Shown here piece by piece: positions 186-5,976 of a stretch of 6,085 nucleotides of DNA. A program made the position numbers and the translations under genes. The notes below the pieces were generated by a model that worked only from the letters and a program-made list of their open reading frames with translations, searched no databases and was not told where the DNA came from. The stretch comes from Flectobacillus sp. Lineage in GTDB: Bacteria > Bacteroidota > Bacteroidia > Cytophagales > Spirosomataceae. The DNA lies in assembly GCA_029865665.1 (NCBI GenBank), contig JARXAV010000148.1, positions 1 to 6,085 on the forward strand. Reading direction: 5' to 3'. The first letter of the stretch is position 1, and each line of letters opens with the position of its first letter.

Positions 186-219
186 TTATCCACAATTCAA
201 CTTCTTTGTTTGTGGATAA
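186..219. promoter_or_regulatory. Convergent pair of perfect DnaA boxes (left pair)
   Basis: TTATCCACA on the plus strand (186-194) faces its reverse complement TGTGGATAA (211-219). With one more flanking base each, the two form a 10-bp inverted repeat (186-195 / 210-219) with a 14-bp spacer. A one-mismatch box (TGTGGAGAA, minus strand) lies just to the left at 170-178. Confidence 0.75.
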
Positions 220-352
220 TAAACAAACCATACACTAGCTCTAAAACCAGTATATAAGCCATATAATATTTGCCAAAAAGCCTACTTTACCAAAAAAATA
301 ACCTAAAACTAATGCTATATCCTAATAACATAAATCTTTCACAACACAAGAG

Positions 353-385
353 TTATCCACATTTAGCCATTTTCTATGTGCATAA
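353..385. promoter_or_regulatory. Convergent pair of DnaA boxes (middle pair)
   Basis: TTATCCACA (353-361, plus) faces TGTGCATAA (377-385, which is TTATGCACA on the minus strand and fits TTATNCACA). The start-to-start distance is 24 bp, against 25 bp in the left pair, so the same arrangement occurs twice, 167 bp apart. Confidence 0.7.
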
Positions 386-464
386 GTGCTGTTTAATACT
401 TTTTCCTATTGACAAAGTGACAACTTTCTCTAAAATTTAGGTGAATTGACTATTTTCGATTTAA

Positions 465-473
465 TTCTCCACA
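465..473 (+). promoter_or_regulatory. One-mismatch DnaA box
   Basis: TTCTCCACA differs from TTATCCACA at the third base. The same variant occurs in the opposite orientation at 170-178, so the two variants bracket the exact boxes between them. It may be a low-affinity site. Confidence 0.4.
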
Positions 474-537
474 AAGGGACAAATACAAAATATGACTTGA
501 GTGTTAACATCTTTATAAATAGCAACCTACATTGAAG

Positions 538-546
538 TTATCCACA
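538..546 (+). promoter_or_regulatory. Perfect DnaA box
   Basis: TTATCCACA, preceded by AG as at 184-185 and 351-352, so all three plus-strand copies share the 11-mer AGTTATCCACA. It follows a box-free AT-rich stretch (474-537). Confidence 0.7.
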
Positions 547-588
547 TTTTGTTGGAGGGTTTGGTTACACTATTTATTCCCCTCTCTA

Positions 589-597
589 TTATACACA
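589..597 (+). promoter_or_regulatory. DnaA box, TTATACACA variant
   Basis: TTATACACA fits the TTATNCACA consensus and lies 51 bp after the previous box in the same orientation. It is the right-most consensus box of the cluster. Confidence 0.6.
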
Positions 598-620: not shown

Positions 621-670
621 GACTGAAACTGGATAGATTTAGTAAGCACAATTCAGCTAAATTTTCAGTC
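621..670. repeat. Bulged inverted repeat at the 3' end of the transposase remnant
   Basis: The left arm GACTGAAA (621-628) pairs with TTTCAGTC (663-670), and further in ATTTAG (637-642) pairs with CTAAAT (657-662). On the right the two parts are contiguous; on the left they are separated by an 8-nt bulge. The loop is 14 nt. The transposase stop codon (665-667, minus) lies inside the right arm. It could be a transcription terminator hairpin for the minus strand or a REP-like element associated with the transposase. Confidence 0.45.
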
Positions 671-1099
671 AAACTCAATAATAAATTTATCCAAATTGGC
701 TGAACTTGGATTTTCGATATGGAATTTCACAAATTCGTCTCTGTTACCAAACCAATTCCACACTTCGTCCCGTCTTAATCTTGTCATTGACTTACTCAGA
801 TGTGAATGATATGATGAATGTGGATATGCTCTGAAATCTTCTACGAAGCCATGCTTTTGTGGATTATGATGAATGTAGTAGATGAGTTCTGTAAAGTAGG
901 CATCTGTATTAATCAAAATCCTACGAAATGGTTCTTCAAAAAGCCCTCCTGTACGTGCATAAGCCTTATTGATAGATTAGGCGTACGAATTAAAAAAATC
1001 TGAAAATTGTTTACTGATAATAAGTGGAGCTGATAACAGTTTAATCTCTGTTTGAGAGACAGTGGCTTGTTCAACGCTGGATGGGTTTTGAACCCGTAT
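665..1099 (-). pseudogene. REP-associated (Y1/RAYT-type) transposase, truncated and with a nonsense codon
   Basis: Reading the minus strand in one frame from about 1099 to the TGA at 665-667 gives a continuous transposase-like protein of about 144 residues, broken once by TAA at 977-979. Recognisable pieces in order are KQFSDFFNSYA, the stop, SINKAYARTGGLFEEPFRR, then ELIYYIHHNPQKHGF and an 'FRAYPHSSYHS' segment. These are typical of the C-terminal half of Bacteroidota Y1 (HUH) transposases, which nick single-stranded DNA at hairpins. The stop stands where relatives have a polar residue such as Gln, so a single C-to-T change (CAA to TAA) explains it. The HUH metal-binding motif and the start are absent: the frame stays open to about 1174, but the extra residues show no match to the family. 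The 83-residue piece after the stop could begin only at a TTG (914-916) and would lack the catalytic site. I infer a dead insertion remnant. Confidence 0.8.
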
Positions 1100-1105
1100 G
1101 GCGTT
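1073..1105. repeat. Imperfect palindrome with GGGTT...AACCC core
   Basis: Outer arms AACGC (1073-1077) and GCGTT (1101-1105) and inner arms GGGTT (1083-1087) and AACCC (1091-1095) pair around a 3-nt loop. The five bases between them on each side are mostly unpaired, so 11 of 15 arm positions match. It lies at the truncated 5' end of the transposase remnant. Its core resembles the perfect palindrome at 4804-4835 on the far side of the ATPase/protease pair. Confidence 0.4.
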
Positions 1106-1282
1106 ATTCGCAATATAATAATGCTCAAAAAGTAAATATTTGTTAGGTATTTGTATTAAATAGAAAATTTTTTATACAAAAAGAAAACATTTTGAGTTAA
1201 AATGTATGTAAATATCATATTAAATACTTATATTAAAAAATACCTTACTTAAAAATCGTAATTTTGTCGAAAAAATCAAATA
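1106..1282. other. AT-rich spacer before the ATPase/protease operon
   Basis: This is a very AT-rich intergenic stretch with long A and T runs. I find no gene, RNA or repeat in it. It contains the likely promoter of the operon near its right end and no Shine-Dalgarno-like purine tract before the ATG at 1283. Confidence 0.6.
1259..1266 (+). promoter_or_regulatory. Bacteroidota-type -7 promoter element (TAATTTTG)
   Basis: TAATTTTG is an exact match to the TAnnTTTG -7 box used by the Bacteroidota primary sigma factor. It ends 16 bp before the ATPase start codon, so the transcript would have a leader of only about 10 nt. I see no clear TTG -33 element at the expected distance upstream (about 1233-1242), so the promoter may be weak or regulated. 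Confidence 0.45.
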
Positions 1283-2269
1283 ATGGCAGCAGCAGATCAA
1301 ATAAAAACCTTGATAAAATCATTTGGAGACGAAGATGAAGCTCGTTTCTTTGCTACTGCTTTGCAAATTGCAGCTACTGAAGCTAAACAAGGGCATTCAC
1401 TATTTGCTCAAGAATTAAAAAAGCTAATAGATTCAGCTAAAAAAGAACGCTCTTTAAATGTAATTCAGCAAAAAGCTATACCATTTAATGTTCCTAAAAG
1501 AGAGCTACAAGAATTGATAGAAGTATTTCAGCCTAAAATTAATATGAACGATATGGTTTTAGATGAAAATATAAAGAACACACTATCGAAAGTCATCAAG
1601 GAACAAGAAAAGTGGCAGTTACTAAAGGCTCATAACTTAGAGCCTAAAAGAAAATTATTATTAACAGGTTCACCTGGAACGGGTAAAACTATGACAGCAC
1701 AGGCAATAGCAGGGGAGCTTGGTATAGCTGTTTATATTATTCGTCTTGATGGTCTAATGTCAAAATATTTAGGAGAATCAATAGCAAAGCTTAGATTGAT
1801 TTTCGATGCAATGAATGACCATAGGGCTGTTTATCTATTTGATGAATTTGACTCTATTGGCTCGCAAAGAAATCAAGGTCAAGACATAGGAGAAATCAAA
1901 AGGGTTTTAAACTCTTTTTTAATTAATATTGAAAAAGACCAGAGTAATAGTATTATCATAGCTGCAACGAATCTACCAGAGTCATTAGATAAAGCTCTAT
2001 TTAGAAGATTTGATGAAATCTTAGAATACCCTCTACCAGATGAAAAGCATATAGTTGATATTATAAAGAAACATACAAGAGCGTATTCTTTTTCTAGTAA
2101 AGTAAATTATACAGAGCTTGCTAAAATTGCAAGGGGGTTAAACTATTCAGAGATTGTAAGAATTTGTAAAGATACAATAAAAGAAATGATTCTTAATGAC
2201 TCTTCTTCCCTCGAATTATCAACATTAAAAAGCTTATTTAAATCAAGAAATGTTGTAAATGAAAAATAA
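1283..2269 (+). CDS. ietA: AAA+ ATPase, IetA-like (defence module ATPase)
   Basis: A 328-residue cytoplasmic ATPase of the classic AAA clade (FtsH/katanin-like core). Residues 1-85 form a helical N-terminal region with no named domain. The core carries Walker A GSPGTGKT (129-136), a pore-loop-like SKYLGES (160-166), Walker B with D187-E188 in YLFDEFD, sensor 1 N230 in AATN, and arginine fingers R241-R242 in FRRFD, so ATP hydrolysis and hexamer assembly should be intact. A small helical lid (about 255-325) follows. There is no signal peptide or membrane segment. The reading frame overlaps the downstream subtilase by 11 bp, which implies co-translation. AAA ATPase followed by a large S8 protease is the ietAS arrangement, reported as a plasmid stability locus and as anti-phage defence. 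I infer that the ATPase senses or unfolds substrates, or controls the protease. Arg codons are mostly AGA/AGG (12 of 15), suggesting acquisition. The ATG at 1283 is preferred because the promoter element lies just upstream. The symbol is by domain and gene order only. Confidence 0.85.
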   Translation: MAAADQIKTLIKSFGDEDEARFFATALQIAATEAKQGHSLFAQELKKLIDSAKKERSLNVIQQKAIPFNVPKRELQELIEVFQPKINMNDMVLDENIKNTLSKVIKEQEKWQLLKAHNLEPKRKLLLTGSPGTGKTMTAQAIAGELGIAVYIIRLDGLMSKYLGESIAKLRLIFDAMNDHRAVYLFDEFDSIGSQRNQGQDIGEIKRVLNSFLINIEKDQSNSIIIAATNLPESLDKALFRRFDEILEYPLPDEKHIVDIIKKHTRAYSFSSKVNYTELAKIARGLNYSEIVRICKDTIKEMILNDSSSLELSTLKSLFKSRNVVNEK

Positions 2270-4736
2270 TAAACCACACTTAATAATTAAAGGGAATACG
2301 ACCTCTAATAAATTTAAATCTACAGCCTCTTCAGGAGGAAAAGAAATCTTTAAGCAAGTAGATAGGCTATTGCATGGACAAAATCTATTACAAAAGATAA
2401 AATCTGTCAGGAAGAATGTAAGCCTTTTGGAAATTGAGGGTACAGAGTTAATAAGAGATAATTCTGTTTACATTGAATTTAGTTCAGATTGGGGTTATAA
2501 GCTATCTTTTGACTCATTTGATACAAGTGGTTTTAGACTTCTTAATATAAAAGAAAACAAAAGAGTTTTGAATGGTGCAGAGGAATATATGTATTCATTG
2601 GTTGTTCAAGCTGAGGAAGGAAGTATTTCCAAATTCATTCATAAAATTGAAAGTTATATAAAAAATAATACCACCAAAACAGATAAAATAACCAAAGAGA
2701 AAATAGTTACAGCTACTCCTGAAAATAAAAAACTTCTAAATAATATCAACGACATTAAAATAGCATCCCTAAAATCATTTTGGGTGGATGAGCCAGAAAT
2801 TCCATTCCCAAATGACAATGAAAATATATGGTGGGAGGTTTGGTTTAGGAAAACGGACAATTACAAAGATAAATTAGCAGAAGTTTCTCAAAATTTAGAG
2901 GGGGTAGGATGTCAAATTAGAGTTTCTCAAATTGAGTTAGCTGAATACATTGTTAAATTAGTAAAAGGAAGTGCAAAGCAACTTTCAAGTTCTCTATTAC
3001 TGCTTGACAACTTAGCAGAACTTCGTAAACCACAAGAAATTGCAGATTTTATTTTAGATAAGAATGTTACCTATGGTGATAAAAAGGCATGGTTAGAAGA
3101 TTTACAACAAAGAACTAACTGTAAATTTGATGAAAATAGCATATTAGTTTGTTTATTGGATTCAGGAGTAAATAATAAACATCCGCTAATAACCCCCTTT
3201 CTGCCTGATAATCAATTATATACTTATAAGTCTTCTTGGGGTACTGAAGATAGTCATCCTTTTGATGGACATGGAACAGGTGTAGCGGGACTTGCTCTAT
3301 ATGGAGATTTAACCAATGCTCTAAGCTCAAAAGATAAAATTGATATTTACCATGGGCTTGAATCATTTAAAATTTTGTTCCATAATCAGCCTAATGACCC
3401 TGACTTATATGGTGCAATTATGGAGAGTGCTGTGGCAACTCCCTCGATAGATAGACCTACAAATCAAAGAGTTTTTTGTTTAACAATTACAGACCGTAAT
3501 TTCAGATTTAATGGTCGTCCTTCCTCTTGGTCATCTTCAATTGATAATTTATGTTTTGGAAAATATTCTGAACCTCAACTATTTATTATTAGTGGGGGTA
3601 ATGTGAATATTACAAGGCAAGAGGATTATCCCGTTTTAAATGAAACAGAATGTATTCACGACCCAGCACAAGCTTACAATGCCTTAACTATTGGAACTTA
3701 TACAAGAAAAGTAAAGATAGATATTTCAACAGGCTATAAACCTTTGGCAGAATATGGTGCTATGGCTCCAAGTAATTCAACATCTTTACTTTTTGATAAA
3801 AATTGGAGTATCAAACCAGATGTGGTATTTGAAGGAGGAAATTTAGGGTATGACTCTAATGGAGACGTCGCAGGGCATAATAGCTTAGATGTTACTTCAT
3901 TGAGCAAAGATTTCAATTATAAAAAATTTATTCAGTTTGGTGATACCAGTGGAGCCGCAGGTATAGCTTCAAAAATGGTTGCTGAATTGAGAACAATGTA
4001 TCCAAATTATTGGGTCGAAACGATAAGAGGATTACTTGTTCATTCTGCTGATTGGACTCTAAAAATGACAACTGGAAAAAGCAAGTTTGAAGTTTTAAGA
4101 ACCGTAGGATACGGTGTTCCTAATCTTCAAAAAGCTATGTTTAGTGCTAACAACTCTTTAACAATTATTATAGAACGAGAAATACAACCATATAAATATG
4201 AAAATTCAAGAGGACAATACAATGAATATCATCTTTTTAAACTTCCTTGGCCCAAAGAAGCATTGGAGTCATTAGAAGAAAAGAATGTTAAATTAACCGT
4301 GACATTATCATACTATATAGAGCCTAATCCGGGAAGTCGGAGATTAGCAACCCATTATTCATATCATTCTCATCAGTTAGATTTTGACATAAATAAGCGA
4401 AATGAAACTGAAAATGACTTCAAAATTCGTATTTCCAAACCCGATGATGAAACATCTGAAAATAAACCCAAAAGAACGGGAGTAGCTTGGGAAATTGGAA
4501 AGAATACGAATGCCAAAGGTTCTATCAGAAAAGATTTTATTACTCTAACAGGTAGAGAAATGTCCGAAAGAAATATTTTAGCTGTTTTTCCTAAAAATGG
4601 ATGGTATAAAAATTTGAAGAGACAGAAAAAGTTTAATGAAAAAGTACGCTATAGTTTAATTGTTTCATTACAAACGGAAGAAAATGAGATTGATTTATAT
4701 ACTCCTGTTGAAAATCAACTAATTCTACACGTTTAG
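2259..4736 (+). CDS. ietS: Subtilisin-like (S8) serine protease, IetS-like
   Basis: An 825-residue intracellular protease. Residues 1-290 are an N-terminal region without a recognised catalytic motif, containing a predicted mixed alpha/beta segment with WWEVWFRK (191-198) and a helical stretch (about 225-285). The S8 domain (about 291-625) holds the full catalytic triad: D301 in LLDSGV, H338 in DGHGTGVAG and S564 in GDTSGAAG, plus oxyanion-hole N448 in SGGNVN. Residues 630-825 form a C-terminal region with HLFKLPWPKEALE, SYYIEPNPG and a late RYSLIVSL strand, a pattern I associate with subtilases that partner an AAA ATPase. There is no signal peptide, so unlike secreted subtilisins it should act in the cytoplasm, and no typical I9 propeptide is evident. 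ATG at 2259 lies inside the end of the ATPase gene. I infer an effector that cleaves host or phage proteins under control of the ATPase; its target is unknown. Confidence 0.85.
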   Translation: MKNNKPHLIIKGNTTSNKFKSTASSGGKEIFKQVDRLLHGQNLLQKIKSVRKNVSLLEIEGTELIRDNSVYIEFSSDWGYKLSFDSFDTSGFRLLNIKENKRVLNGAEEYMYSLVVQAEEGSISKFIHKIESYIKNNTTKTDKITKEKIVTATPENKKLLNNINDIKIASLKSFWVDEPEIPFPNDNENIWWEVWFRKTDNYKDKLAEVSQNLEGVGCQIRVSQIELAEYIVKLVKGSAKQLSSSLLLLDNLAELRKPQEIADFILDKNVTYGDKKAWLEDLQQRTNCKFDENSILVCLLDSGVNNKHPLITPFLPDNQLYTYKSSWGTEDSHPFDGHGTGVAGLALYGDLTNALSSKDKIDIYHGLESFKILFHNQPNDPDLYGAIMESAVATPSIDRPTNQRVFCLTITDRNFRFNGRPSSWSSSIDNLCFGKYSEPQLFIISGGNVNITRQEDYPVLNETECIHDPAQAYNALTIGTYTRKVKIDISTGYKPLAEYGAMAPSNSTSLLFDKNWSIKPDVVFEGGNLGYDSNGDVAGHNSLDVTSLSKDFNYKKFIQFGDTSGAAGIASKMVAELRTMYPNYWVETIRGLLVHSADWTLKMTTGKSKFEVLRTVGYGVPNLQKAMFSANNSLTIIIEREIQPYKYENSRGQYNEYHLFKLPWPKEALESLEEKNVKLTVTLSYYIEPNPGSRRLATHYSYHSHQLDFDINKRNETENDFKIRISKPDDETSENKPKRTGVAWEIGKNTNAKGSIRKDFITLTGREMSERNILAVFPKNGWYKNLKRQKKFNEKVRYSLIVSLQTEENEIDLYTPVENQLILHV

Positions 4737-4803: not shown

Positions 4804-4835
4804 AATGCAGGCAGGGTTTGAACCCTGCCTGCATT
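4804..4835. repeat. Perfect 15-bp-arm palindrome between convergent genes
   Basis: AATGCAGGCAGGGTT (4804-4818) and AACCCTGCCTGCATT (4821-4835) are exact reverse complements around a central TG. It is GC-rich in an otherwise AT-rich spacer and lies between two convergent operons, where it could form a strong hairpin in either transcript. No T-run follows on either strand, so it is not a textbook intrinsic terminator. Its GGGTT...AACCC core also occurs in the palindrome at 1073-1105, suggesting a REP-like repeat family of the kind that Y1 transposases act on. Confidence 0.75.
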
Positions 4836-4962: not shown

Positions 4963-5976
4963 CTATTCCTGATAGAGTGCCGTTAATACGGTTTGCCCTA
5001 CTGCTTTGAGGGTATTTTTATCAATAATCGACATATTGTCTTGATGGGTATGGTGATAACTTCCAAAAGTTTTAGGGTCGTTTGGATGTAATTCTACGAT
5101 GTCAATCATTTGAATTTTTGCTACGTCATTTACTGGTACGTGGTCGTCGGTTAATCCTCCGCCATCGGCATCAATAAAGTAGTTAGAATAGCCCAAACGG
5201 CTGGCAATATCCCAAATATTTCTTACCACCATCGGAGCATATTGCATCGACATTCCTTCGTAAGGGAATACTGCACCTTTTGCACCTACCATATCCAACA
5301 GAATACCATAATATGCCTGATAGTTGTCTTTATGCTTGTGTGAAGCCCAATACTGCGAACCTAAACACCACCAGTTTTTAGTAGGGTCATTCGATTCTGC
5401 ATCGTGTGGTTCTCCTGTATCTTCTACATCGAAGAAAATAATATCTACACCCACATTAGGTTGAGCTTTTGCCGTATGAATCGCTCTGGCAATTTCTAAT
5501 AAAATACCTACGCCACTTCCTCCGTCGTTCGCTCCGTCAATGGCTTTTTTAGGGTTAATCGAGTCTTTATCAGCTATCGAACGAGAATCCCAGTGAGAAG
5601 TCAACAAAATGCGTTTAGCCGCTGTAGGATTGATACTACCAATGATATTGCTTGCATTCAGTTTAGAACCGTCATAAGCTGTTGCCACAAAATCCTGAGA
5701 AATTACCTCAAAACCGTAGTTTTTAAGGGTTGCTTTCAACCAAGCAGCACAAGCTCGGTGCGGAGCAGTGTTTGGAACACGTGGGCCAAAACTTACTTGT
5801 TTATCAACAAAATGATATGCAGAATCGGCATTGAAAACAGGTGCAGGTAAAAGTTCTACGGGTTGTGTTTCGGCTGTTTCGGTCGATTCACTTTTGTTTA
5901 ATTTCTGGAAGTAAACAGCAACACCTGATACTAGAAAAATGCCTAAAAGGGCAAATGCGATGGTTGATTTTTTCAT
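4963..5976 (-). CDS. Glutaminyl-peptide cyclotransferase (M28 family zinc enzyme), exported
   Basis: A 337-residue protein of the Bacteroidota glutaminyl cyclase type, which turns N-terminal Gln of exported proteins into pyroglutamate (EC 2.3.2.5). The N-terminus has KK then a hydrophobic segment (about 5-23) without a lipobox Cys, so it is a signal peptide or a membrane anchor; a 25-45 linker follows. The M28 fold shows FGPRVPNT (63-70), SHWDSR with H128 and D130, GANDGGSGVG with zinc ligand D151, FFDVEDTGEP with E185 (likely catalytic) and D186 (zinc), LLDMVG with D228, TDDH (276-279) and HHTHQDN with likely zinc ligand H309. The GSQYWASH and TLKAVGQTVL segments are also characteristic. The position that is usually Trp before the last His is His308 here. 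A general M28 aminopeptidase is the alternative. The start is only 3 bp after the stop of an upstream gene, so the two are co-transcribed; no Shine-Dalgarno sequence is seen. Confidence 0.85.
   Translation of the reverse strand: MKKSTIAFALLGIFLVSGVAVYFQKLNKSESTETAETQPVELLPAPVFNADSAYHFVDKQVSFGPRVPNTAPHRACAAWLKATLKNYGFEVISQDFVATAYDGSKLNASNIIGSINPTAAKRILLTSHWDSRSIADKDSINPKKAIDGANDGGSGVGILLEIARAIHTAKAQPNVGVDIIFFDVEDTGEPHDAESNDPTKNWWCLGSQYWASHKHKDNYQAYYGILLDMVGAKGAVFPYEGMSMQYAPMVVRNIWDIASRLGYSNYFIDADGGGLTDDHVPVNDVAKIQMIDIVELHPNDPKTFGSYHHTHQDNMSIIDKNTLKAVGQTVLTALYQE

What the first reader, a model, noticed from the sequence alone, without database searches (positions are those of the whole stretch)
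1283..4736. ietAS-like AAA ATPase plus intracellular subtilase: probable anti-phage or plasmid-conflict system
An AAA+ ATPase with intact Walker A/B, sensor and arginine fingers overlaps by 11 bp a large S8 protease with intact D301/H338/S564 and N448, and neither is exported. This pairing matches ietAS, known from memory as a Ti-plasmid incompatibility/stability locus and later as one of the predicted-then-tested anti-phage systems. The mechanism, trigger and protease targets are, to my knowledge, not well defined, and a chromosomal, origin-adjacent Bacteroidota copy is a useful member.
Basis: partly seen in the sequence, partly recalled or inferred. Interest (0 to 1): 0.75.

Follow-up and report, generated by a model that had tools for sequence, protein, structure and literature searches.

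The report
IetAS toxin-antitoxin pair with swappable end
A Bacteroidota bacterium carries a known kind of two-gene anti-virus or plasmid-stabilising module, an ATPase plus an internal protein-cutting enzyme, and comparison with relatives suggests that the front part of the cutting enzyme is exchanged like a cartridge while the rest stays put.

Summary
In detail: an intact AAA+ ATPase gene (1283-2269) overlaps by 11 bp an intact cytoplasmic subtilase gene (2259-4736). The pair is IetAS in the PADLOC sense (IetA E 2.8e-74, IetS E 1.2e-33), below NCBIfam's narrower equivalog cut-offs. It is accessory: 2 of 150 genomes of the nearest sampled family have an IetA at E up to 1e-60. Its slot after valS holds a Septu pair in a related genome. 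Published homologues are toxin (protease) - antitoxin (ATPase) pairs. 'Origin-adjacent' is not supported.

New: the first ~160 residues of IetS are an exchanged cassette. Window and Arcicella rigui IetS are 33-34% identical there, 93-94% in the middle and protease domains. Cassette type needs 8 changes on the protease tree, as many as shuffled labels. Across 61 distinct pairs, IetA divergence tracks the middle, protease and C-terminal parts of IetS, not the cassette, even against more variable control columns; a weak link appears in a 26-pair subset. I propose that the cassette recognises trigger or target while IetA restrains the rest; that assignment is inference.

The parts
1283..2269 (+). 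ietA: AAA+ ATPase (328 aa), N-terminal three-helix region (about 1-61) plus one Vps4/p97-like AAA domain; presumed antitoxin/regulator
1667..1690 (+). Walker A GSPGTGKT with K135
   Evidence: read; P131, G132, G134, K135, T136 invariant in 58 aligned IetA
2259..4736 (+). ietS: cytoplasmic S8 subtilase (825 aa); presumed toxin/effector
2259..2753 (+). exchangeable N-terminal module of IetS (about residues 1-165)
2763..3128 (+). conserved middle domain of IetS (residues 169-290); strand-helix-strand-strand-helix-strand order at 190-256 like a subtilase propeptide (inferred)
3138..4115 (+). S8 protease domain (residues 294-619) with D301 (3159-3161), H338 (3270-3272), N448 (3600-3602), S564 (3948-3950)
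4179..4733 (+). C-terminal domain of IetS (residues 641-825), divergence tracks IetA
2259..2269 (+). 11-bp overlap of the two genes, also 11 bp in L001, L002, L004, L005 and L009

Best explanation
A mobile IetAS module of the toxin-antitoxin / anti-phage kind. IetS is a cytoplasmic subtilase that is harmful when unrestrained; IetA, a Vps4/p97-like AAA+ ATPase from the same operon, holds it in check through the conserved middle and C-terminal parts of IetS. A foreign event (phage replication, or loss of the module in the plasmid-borne cases) breaks the restraint and IetS cleaves proteins, stopping the infection or killing module-free cells. The first ~160 residues of IetS form an exchangeable recognition module, the part that sees the trigger or selects the target, and it is replaced by recombination while IetA and the protease stay the same. 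Shown here: genes, family, intact active sites, accessory distribution, repeated exchange of the N-module. Shown by others for homologues: protease toxic alone and neutralised by the ATPase; phage replication proteins as activators. Inferred: that it works the same way here, that IetA acts on the middle and C-terminal parts, and that the N-module is the recognition part.
Against: No functional data for this pair. NCBIfam equivalog cut-offs are not met (196 of 510 bits, 53 of 900 bits). Raw correlation of IetA with the N-module distance is high too (0.81 against 0.86-0.90 for the other parts). In the 26 pairs nearest the window the N-module keeps a weak independent link to IetA (r 0.18, 3 of 300 permutations), and the protease domain does not (0.06, 86 of 300). 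Only 9 of the 26 type-labelled sequences have a known IetA partner (3 of one type, 6 of the other), so '0 separating IetA columns' is a weak test. A Rhizobium and a Shinella plasmid copy show no exchange (92% N, 86-91% elsewhere). Smaller mosaic patches also occur at 376-400 and 526-550, and a second DNA step lies in the protease part of L002 against L004, so the module is not the only moving part. Neighbour scans show few shared defence genes: no PADLOC family in more than 2 of 106 neighbours.
Confidence: 0.6

Rival explanations
1. Pure stabilisation (addiction) module: IetA restrains IetS, and loss of the genes kills the cell; no phage function in this host.
For: A homologue confers stability on pTiC58 (as cited in PMC8562856) and another promotes SGI1 maintenance (PMC5006074); 491 of 72,556 plasmid records hold IetS relatives, 340 of them typed conjugative.
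Against: The SGI1 operon under its own promoter gave no post-segregational killing effect in E. coli (passage of PMC5006074). This copy has chromosomal flanks, valS and M28-mutL; a Septu pair lies in the valS slot of a relative; homologues are reported to respond to phage replication proteins; exchange of one module is not needed for addiction.
Confidence: 0.2
2. AAA+ protease machine: IetA unfolds foreign proteins and feeds them to IetS, like ClpXP, FtsH or the proteasome, and the N-module is the substrate adaptor.
For: The IetA fold is nearest Vps4, PAN, FtsH-type and proteasomal ATPases; the ATPase is the most conserved part (66% mean pairwise identity over 62 sequences, against 37% for the N-module over 142).
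Against: Reported toxicity of the protease without the ATPase in homologues means that the protease can act without it; a subtilase of this kind is not known to form a closed chamber (recalled).
Confidence: 0.15
3. The N-module varies because phage or plasmid inhibitors of IetS bind it; it is an evasion surface and not the sensor.
For: Frequent exchange of one module fits any arms race.
Against: Nothing here separates it from the sensor reading; the 376-400 and 526-550 patches in the protease would suit inhibitor evasion better (inference).
Confidence: 0.2
4. Housekeeping proteolysis: a core quality-control pair.
For: AAA+ plus protease pairs are common in housekeeping (recalled).
Against: IetA at E up to 1e-60 in 2 of 150 family genomes; no IetA or IetS match beyond chance-length stretches beside M28 in 6 of 6 related genomes; flanking genes differ from copy to copy, no Pfam family in more than 2 of 106 neighbours.
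Confidence: 0.03

Closest known systems
IetAS (PADLOC IetA PDLC04232, IetS PDLC02198; pTiC58 ietA/ietS)
   Same: Two-gene operon, AAA ATPase first, S8 protease second; profile matches over residues 1-309 of IetA and 293-821 of IetS; listed Agrobacterium plasmid IetS align over residues 169-825 at 35-36%.
   Different: Residues 1-168 are outside those Agrobacterium alignments; chromosomal flanks, Bacteroidota; below NCBIfam equivalog cut-offs.
SGI1 sgiAT (S026-S025) toxin-antitoxin system
   Same: AAA ATPase antitoxin and subtilisin-like toxin, antitoxin gene first (PMC5006074, passages).
   Different: On a mobilisable resistance island in enterobacteria; genes separated by 20 bp; not compared directly here.
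Mycoplasma TA132/3 (A132 AAA-ATPase, T133 subtilisin-like protease)
   Same: Same gene order and same assigned roles; neutralisation confirmed in Mycoplasma capricolum, E. coli and B. subtilis results called rather inconclusive overall (PMC8562856, passages).
   Different: Distant host, proteins of 353 and 757 aa; not compared directly here.
Pro-subtilases such as ProN-Tk-SP (3afg)
   Same: Top Foldseek hit (E 9.0e-17); propeptide-like strand and helix order at 190-256 of the IetS model.
   Different: That superposition is poor (rmsd 22.6, TM 0.32) and the aligned range was not shown; secreted enzymes (recalled), whereas IetS has no signal peptide and carries the exchangeable N-module.

Membership tests
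IetAS (PADLOC sense) | IetA profile match over most of the protein | tested here: met
   PDLC04232 E 2.8e-74, residues 1-309 of 328
IetAS (PADLOC sense) | IetS profile match | tested here: met
   PDLC02198 E 1.2e-33, best stretch residues 293-821; PDLC02197 E 5.9e-21 covers 112-644
IetAS (PADLOC sense) | adjacent co-directional genes, ATPase then protease | tested here: met
   11-bp overlap; 27 of 30 loci with full-length IetS downstream
IetAS (PADLOC sense) | intact ATPase and serine-protease active sites | tested here: met
IetAS (PADLOC sense) | protease toxic alone, neutralised by the ATPase | not testable with these tools
   shown for homologues only (passages)
IetAS (PADLOC sense) | protection against phages | not testable with these tools
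   family treated as an anti-phage system in passages of PMC10732053, PMC10286901, PMC11878078; the first test (Gao et al. 2020) is recalled
NCBIfam equivalogs IteA (NF042959) and IteS (NF042956) | score above the curated equivalog cut-off | tested here: not met
   196.4 against 510 and 52.7 against 900 bits; so it is not filed as these narrow equivalogs
FtsH or other housekeeping AAA protease | score above the NCBIfam FtsH cut-off; protease fused to the ATPase | tested here: not met
   103.2 bits against 600; separate genes
Type VII secretion mycosin | score above cut-off | tested here: not met
   19.4 against 278.75 bits

The most novel reading that the evidence does not exclude
IetS is a modular bacterial immune protease whose first ~160 residues are an interchangeable phage- or target-recognition cartridge, exchanged within and between Arcicella-like and Flavobacterium lineages independently of both the protease and its AAA+ partner. 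This would place the trigger recognition of IetAS in the effector protease itself, with IetA as a general restraint acting on the middle and C-terminal domains.
Probability: 0.4. Interest if true: 0.75.

Novelty: new member of a known kind. Interest (0 to 1): 0.5.

Why it matters
The mechanism of IetAS is called unknown in a 2025 paper (passage of PMC11878078). A module that is exchanged by itself, with natural alleles (window type and A. rigui type) that are 33-34% identical in it and 93-94% identical in the middle and protease domains, turns the sensor question into a direct comparison: nearly the same protease background, near-identical IetA (95% between the window and the partner assigned to P0009, which has the A. 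rigui-type module), different recognition module. The IetA of A. rigui itself was not seen here.

Tried and rejected
Core-genome or housekeeping reading: rejected by 2 of 150 presence and differing flanks. 'Origin-adjacent': not supported, see the observation check. Exchange in Klebsiella plasmids: one Klebsiella IetS that seemed to lack the N-module (H72) starts late, about 100 bp after an IS110-family transposase gene, so it is no evidence of exchange. Exchange in Rhizobium/Shinella: none seen. Noise as the cause of the missing IetA link: tested with more variable control columns and not supported. Sequence search of solved structures: 0 hits for IetS alone; 4 hits for the alignment, all to positions within 293-352 of its profile, around D301/H338. 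Viral fold library: 12 matches at E up to 0.001, ten named or described as subtilase-type peptidases or serine proteinases, one a baseplate protein and one named a metalloproteinase. VIA-align barely tests the N-module (its list spans 278-631), so I make no claim about the fold of residues 1-165 beyond the model's secondary structure. Rfam and tRNA scans: nothing at threshold. Phage records: 6 of 50,697 hold an IetS match, none covering 80% of it. Literature searches on the pair, the mechanism and N-terminal exchange listed no title or abstract start that describes an exchanged N-terminal module of IetS; the library holds open-licence papers only and I opened passages of five papers. Yamamoto et al. 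2009 is not held: only its citation in PMC8562856 was seen. Stokar-Avihail et al. 2023 was seen only as cited.

For the trees and counts I used 39 of 142 aligned IetS (26 of the 39 carry a type label), for the window-by-window scan 25 sequences (99 of their 300 pairs, those with median window identity of 80% or more), for partner analysis 62 pairs, 61 of them distinct. The 142 (139 distinct) leave out listed hits shorter than 790 aa and the broken or cut loci L016, L025 and L030, and come from the best 120 of 2,006 hits shown. 34 of the 62 pairs join IetA and IetS records by equal longest-contig length, which is an inference; 27 are from loci read directly and one is the window. The neighbour scan used 106 of 156 mechanical ORFs listed (nearest two a side of 28 loci, fewer at contig ends; L016's second downstream ORF left out). 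The exchange was first noticed in an identity profile, so the tests that followed are not blind, and the two module types were read off the module's own tree.
Full report
WHAT IS THERE. The window holds the end of valS (1-93; Val_tRNA-synt_C 21.5 bits, below its 25.9 cut-off; the first 90 bases are 81-86% identical to the valS end of 5 of 6 related genomes and 79% over 70 bases to the sixth), an intergenic stretch with DnaA-box-like sites, a broken transposase-like remnant, ietA (1283-2269), ietS (2259-4736), an M28 peptidase gene (4963-5976, minus) and, on the minus strand, a tail that matches the gene before M28 in 4 of 6 relatives at E below 0.001 (that gene begins like MutL, recalled). IetA and IetS are intact, overlap by 11 bp, and match the PADLOC IetA and IetS models. 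NCBIfam's equivalog models also rank first for both, but far below their cut-offs.

FAMILY AND DISTRIBUTION. A genome scan found 30 loci with an IetA relative, 52-86% identical; 27 of them have a full-length IetS ORF directly downstream, and the other three are a late frame change (L016), a contig end (L025) and a doubly frame-shifted pair (L030). In the family of the nearest sampled genome, 2 of 150 genomes drawn from a larger group have an IetA at E up to 1e-60, one 84% and one 45% identical. Of 106 mechanical ORFs beside 28 of the loci, no Pfam or PADLOC family is seen more than twice, so the copies sit in unrelated places. Single neighbours match type I restriction subunits, an oligonucleotide cyclase, a type II methyltransferase and PDC-S31; by name, a type I restriction enzyme stands beside L012 and a MADS mad3 match beside L003 (2 of 10 neighbours rescanned). 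IetS relatives are on 491 of 72,556 plasmid records, 340 of them typed conjugative.

THE SITE. In 6 of 6 related genomes examined, the MutL-like gene and M28 are neighbours as here, and no IetA or IetS match beyond chance-length stretches is near. valS lies elsewhere in them: 70, 72 and 274 kb away where both are on one contig (G408, G379, G358), on other contigs in the other three. The window's valS - ietAS - M28 order therefore joins two places that are apart in relatives, either a rearrangement in this lineage or an assembly join. A pair of exact DnaA-box sites follows valS in 4 of 6 relatives. In one of them (G408) two genes sit between valS and those boxes, and they match Septu PtuA (E 7.6e-65) and PtuB (E 8e-17). 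So the stretch after valS holds one known defence pair in a relative and IetAS here; two cases are a lead to a defence hotspot, not proof.

THE EXCHANGED MODULE. IetS of Arcicella rigui (P0008) and of a metagenome contig (P0009) are 33-34% identical to the window in residues 1-165 but 88-94% identical in the middle and protease domains and 84-86% in the C-terminal part, with the change near residues 155-170. P0008 and P0009 are 99% identical to each other in the module. In a tree of residues beyond 170 the window, P0003-P0007, P0008 and P0009 are one clade with SH-aLRT 100; in the module's own tree they are not, and holding them together is rejected (p-AU 8.1e-5). Labelling the two main module types, as read off the module tree, on 26 Arcicella-like and Flavobacterium sequences, the protease tree needs 8 changes (shuffled labels 8.2 on average; at least 5 forced by well-supported branches). 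No column outside the module separates the types (0 of 660 in IetS; 47 of 165 inside it, where they were defined). In 99 pairs whose median window identity is at least 80%, a drop of 30 points or more is seen in 31-48% of pairs in five of the six 25-residue windows up to residue 150 (10% at 76-100), in 10% at 151-175, 14% at 376-400, 12% at 526-550 and at most 3% elsewhere. Nucleotide comparison of L002 with L004 shows the same step: ietA 88-97%, module 59-65%, next bin 91%, then a second drop to 67-71% in the bins starting 2983-3433. The reverse case also occurs: L001 and P0012 are 95% identical in the module and 75% in the protease domain.

WHAT IT SAYS ABOUT MECHANISM. Across 61 distinct IetA-IetS pairs, IetA distance keeps an independent relation with the middle (r 0.41), protease (0.32) and C-terminal (0.32) parts of IetS and none with the module (r -0.04; 226 of 300 permutations reach it); with log-transformed distances 0.40, 0.36, 0.27 and 0.00 (140 of 300). 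The module's raw correlation with IetA is high as well (0.81 against 0.86-0.90), as expected of genes in one operon. To test whether noise in a fast-changing module explains this, I took the same number of the most variable columns from residue 169 on: they are more variable than the module (19% against 34% mean identity) yet keep r 0.20 (0 of 300), the module 0.03 (103 of 300). In the 26 pairs nearest the window the values are 0.44 (middle), 0.06 (protease), 0.58 (C-terminal) and a weak 0.18 for the module (3 of 300). The simplest reading is that IetA acts on the middle and C-terminal parts, and that the module meets something else that changes quickly. Published work on homologues gives the rest: the protease is the toxin and the ATPase the antitoxin on SGI1 and in mycoplasmas, and on pTiC58 as cited (passages); phage primase, helicase and polymerase are named as activators of systems including ietAS (passage); and the mechanism is called unknown in 2025 (passage). 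I therefore propose a restrained protease whose own N-terminal module carries specificity for the trigger or target. The restraint is established for homologues; the role of the module is inference. Evasion of phage inhibitors is the closest rival and is not excluded.

LIMITS. No experiment; no structure of the complex; no genome held for the window; partner assignments for 34 of 62 pairs rest on equal contig lengths; the permutation counts do not allow for shared ancestry; the exchange is shown for one Bacteroidota clade and not for the Rhizobium/Shinella pair examined.

Noticed in passing
L074 5650-7874 (minus), genome G408: A Septu PtuAB pair lies directly after valS, between valS and a DnaA-box pair that in three other relatives follows valS within about 200 bp; with ietAS after valS in the window this may be a defence insertion site.
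   Followed up: partly
window 186-597: Six DnaA-box-like sites (TTWTNCACA) in about 410 bp; a pair of exact TTATCCACA sites also follows valS in 4 of 6 related genomes although dnaA is far from valS in G358.
   Followed up: partly
window about 665-1125, minus strand: Remnant that reads like a REP-associated (RAYT, Y1-type) transposase by recalled motifs, with one internal stop; no Pfam transposase match for its two ORF pieces.
   Followed up: partly
window 4804-4835 and about 1070-1105: REP-like palindromes around GGGTT..AACCC, the first with perfect 15-nt arms, on either side of ietAS; the second was seen by eye only.
   Followed up: no
L030 10001-13600 (Chitinophaga sp. E66): Both ietA and ietS are frame-shifted, a decayed copy or a sequencing fault.
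   Followed up: no
IetS residues 376-400 and 526-550 (window 3384-3458 and 3834-3908): Two smaller mosaic patches in the protease domain, the second just before the catalytic serine; they could concern substrate specificity or inhibitor evasion.
   Followed up: partly
L056 4690-8116, genome G435: The closest ietAS in the 150 sampled family genomes (IetA 84%, IetS 61%; the other, G202, is 45%); by eye its IetS begins like the A. rigui-side module type, and it sits beside genes that look like fabI and a phosphofructokinase (recalled).
   Followed up: partly
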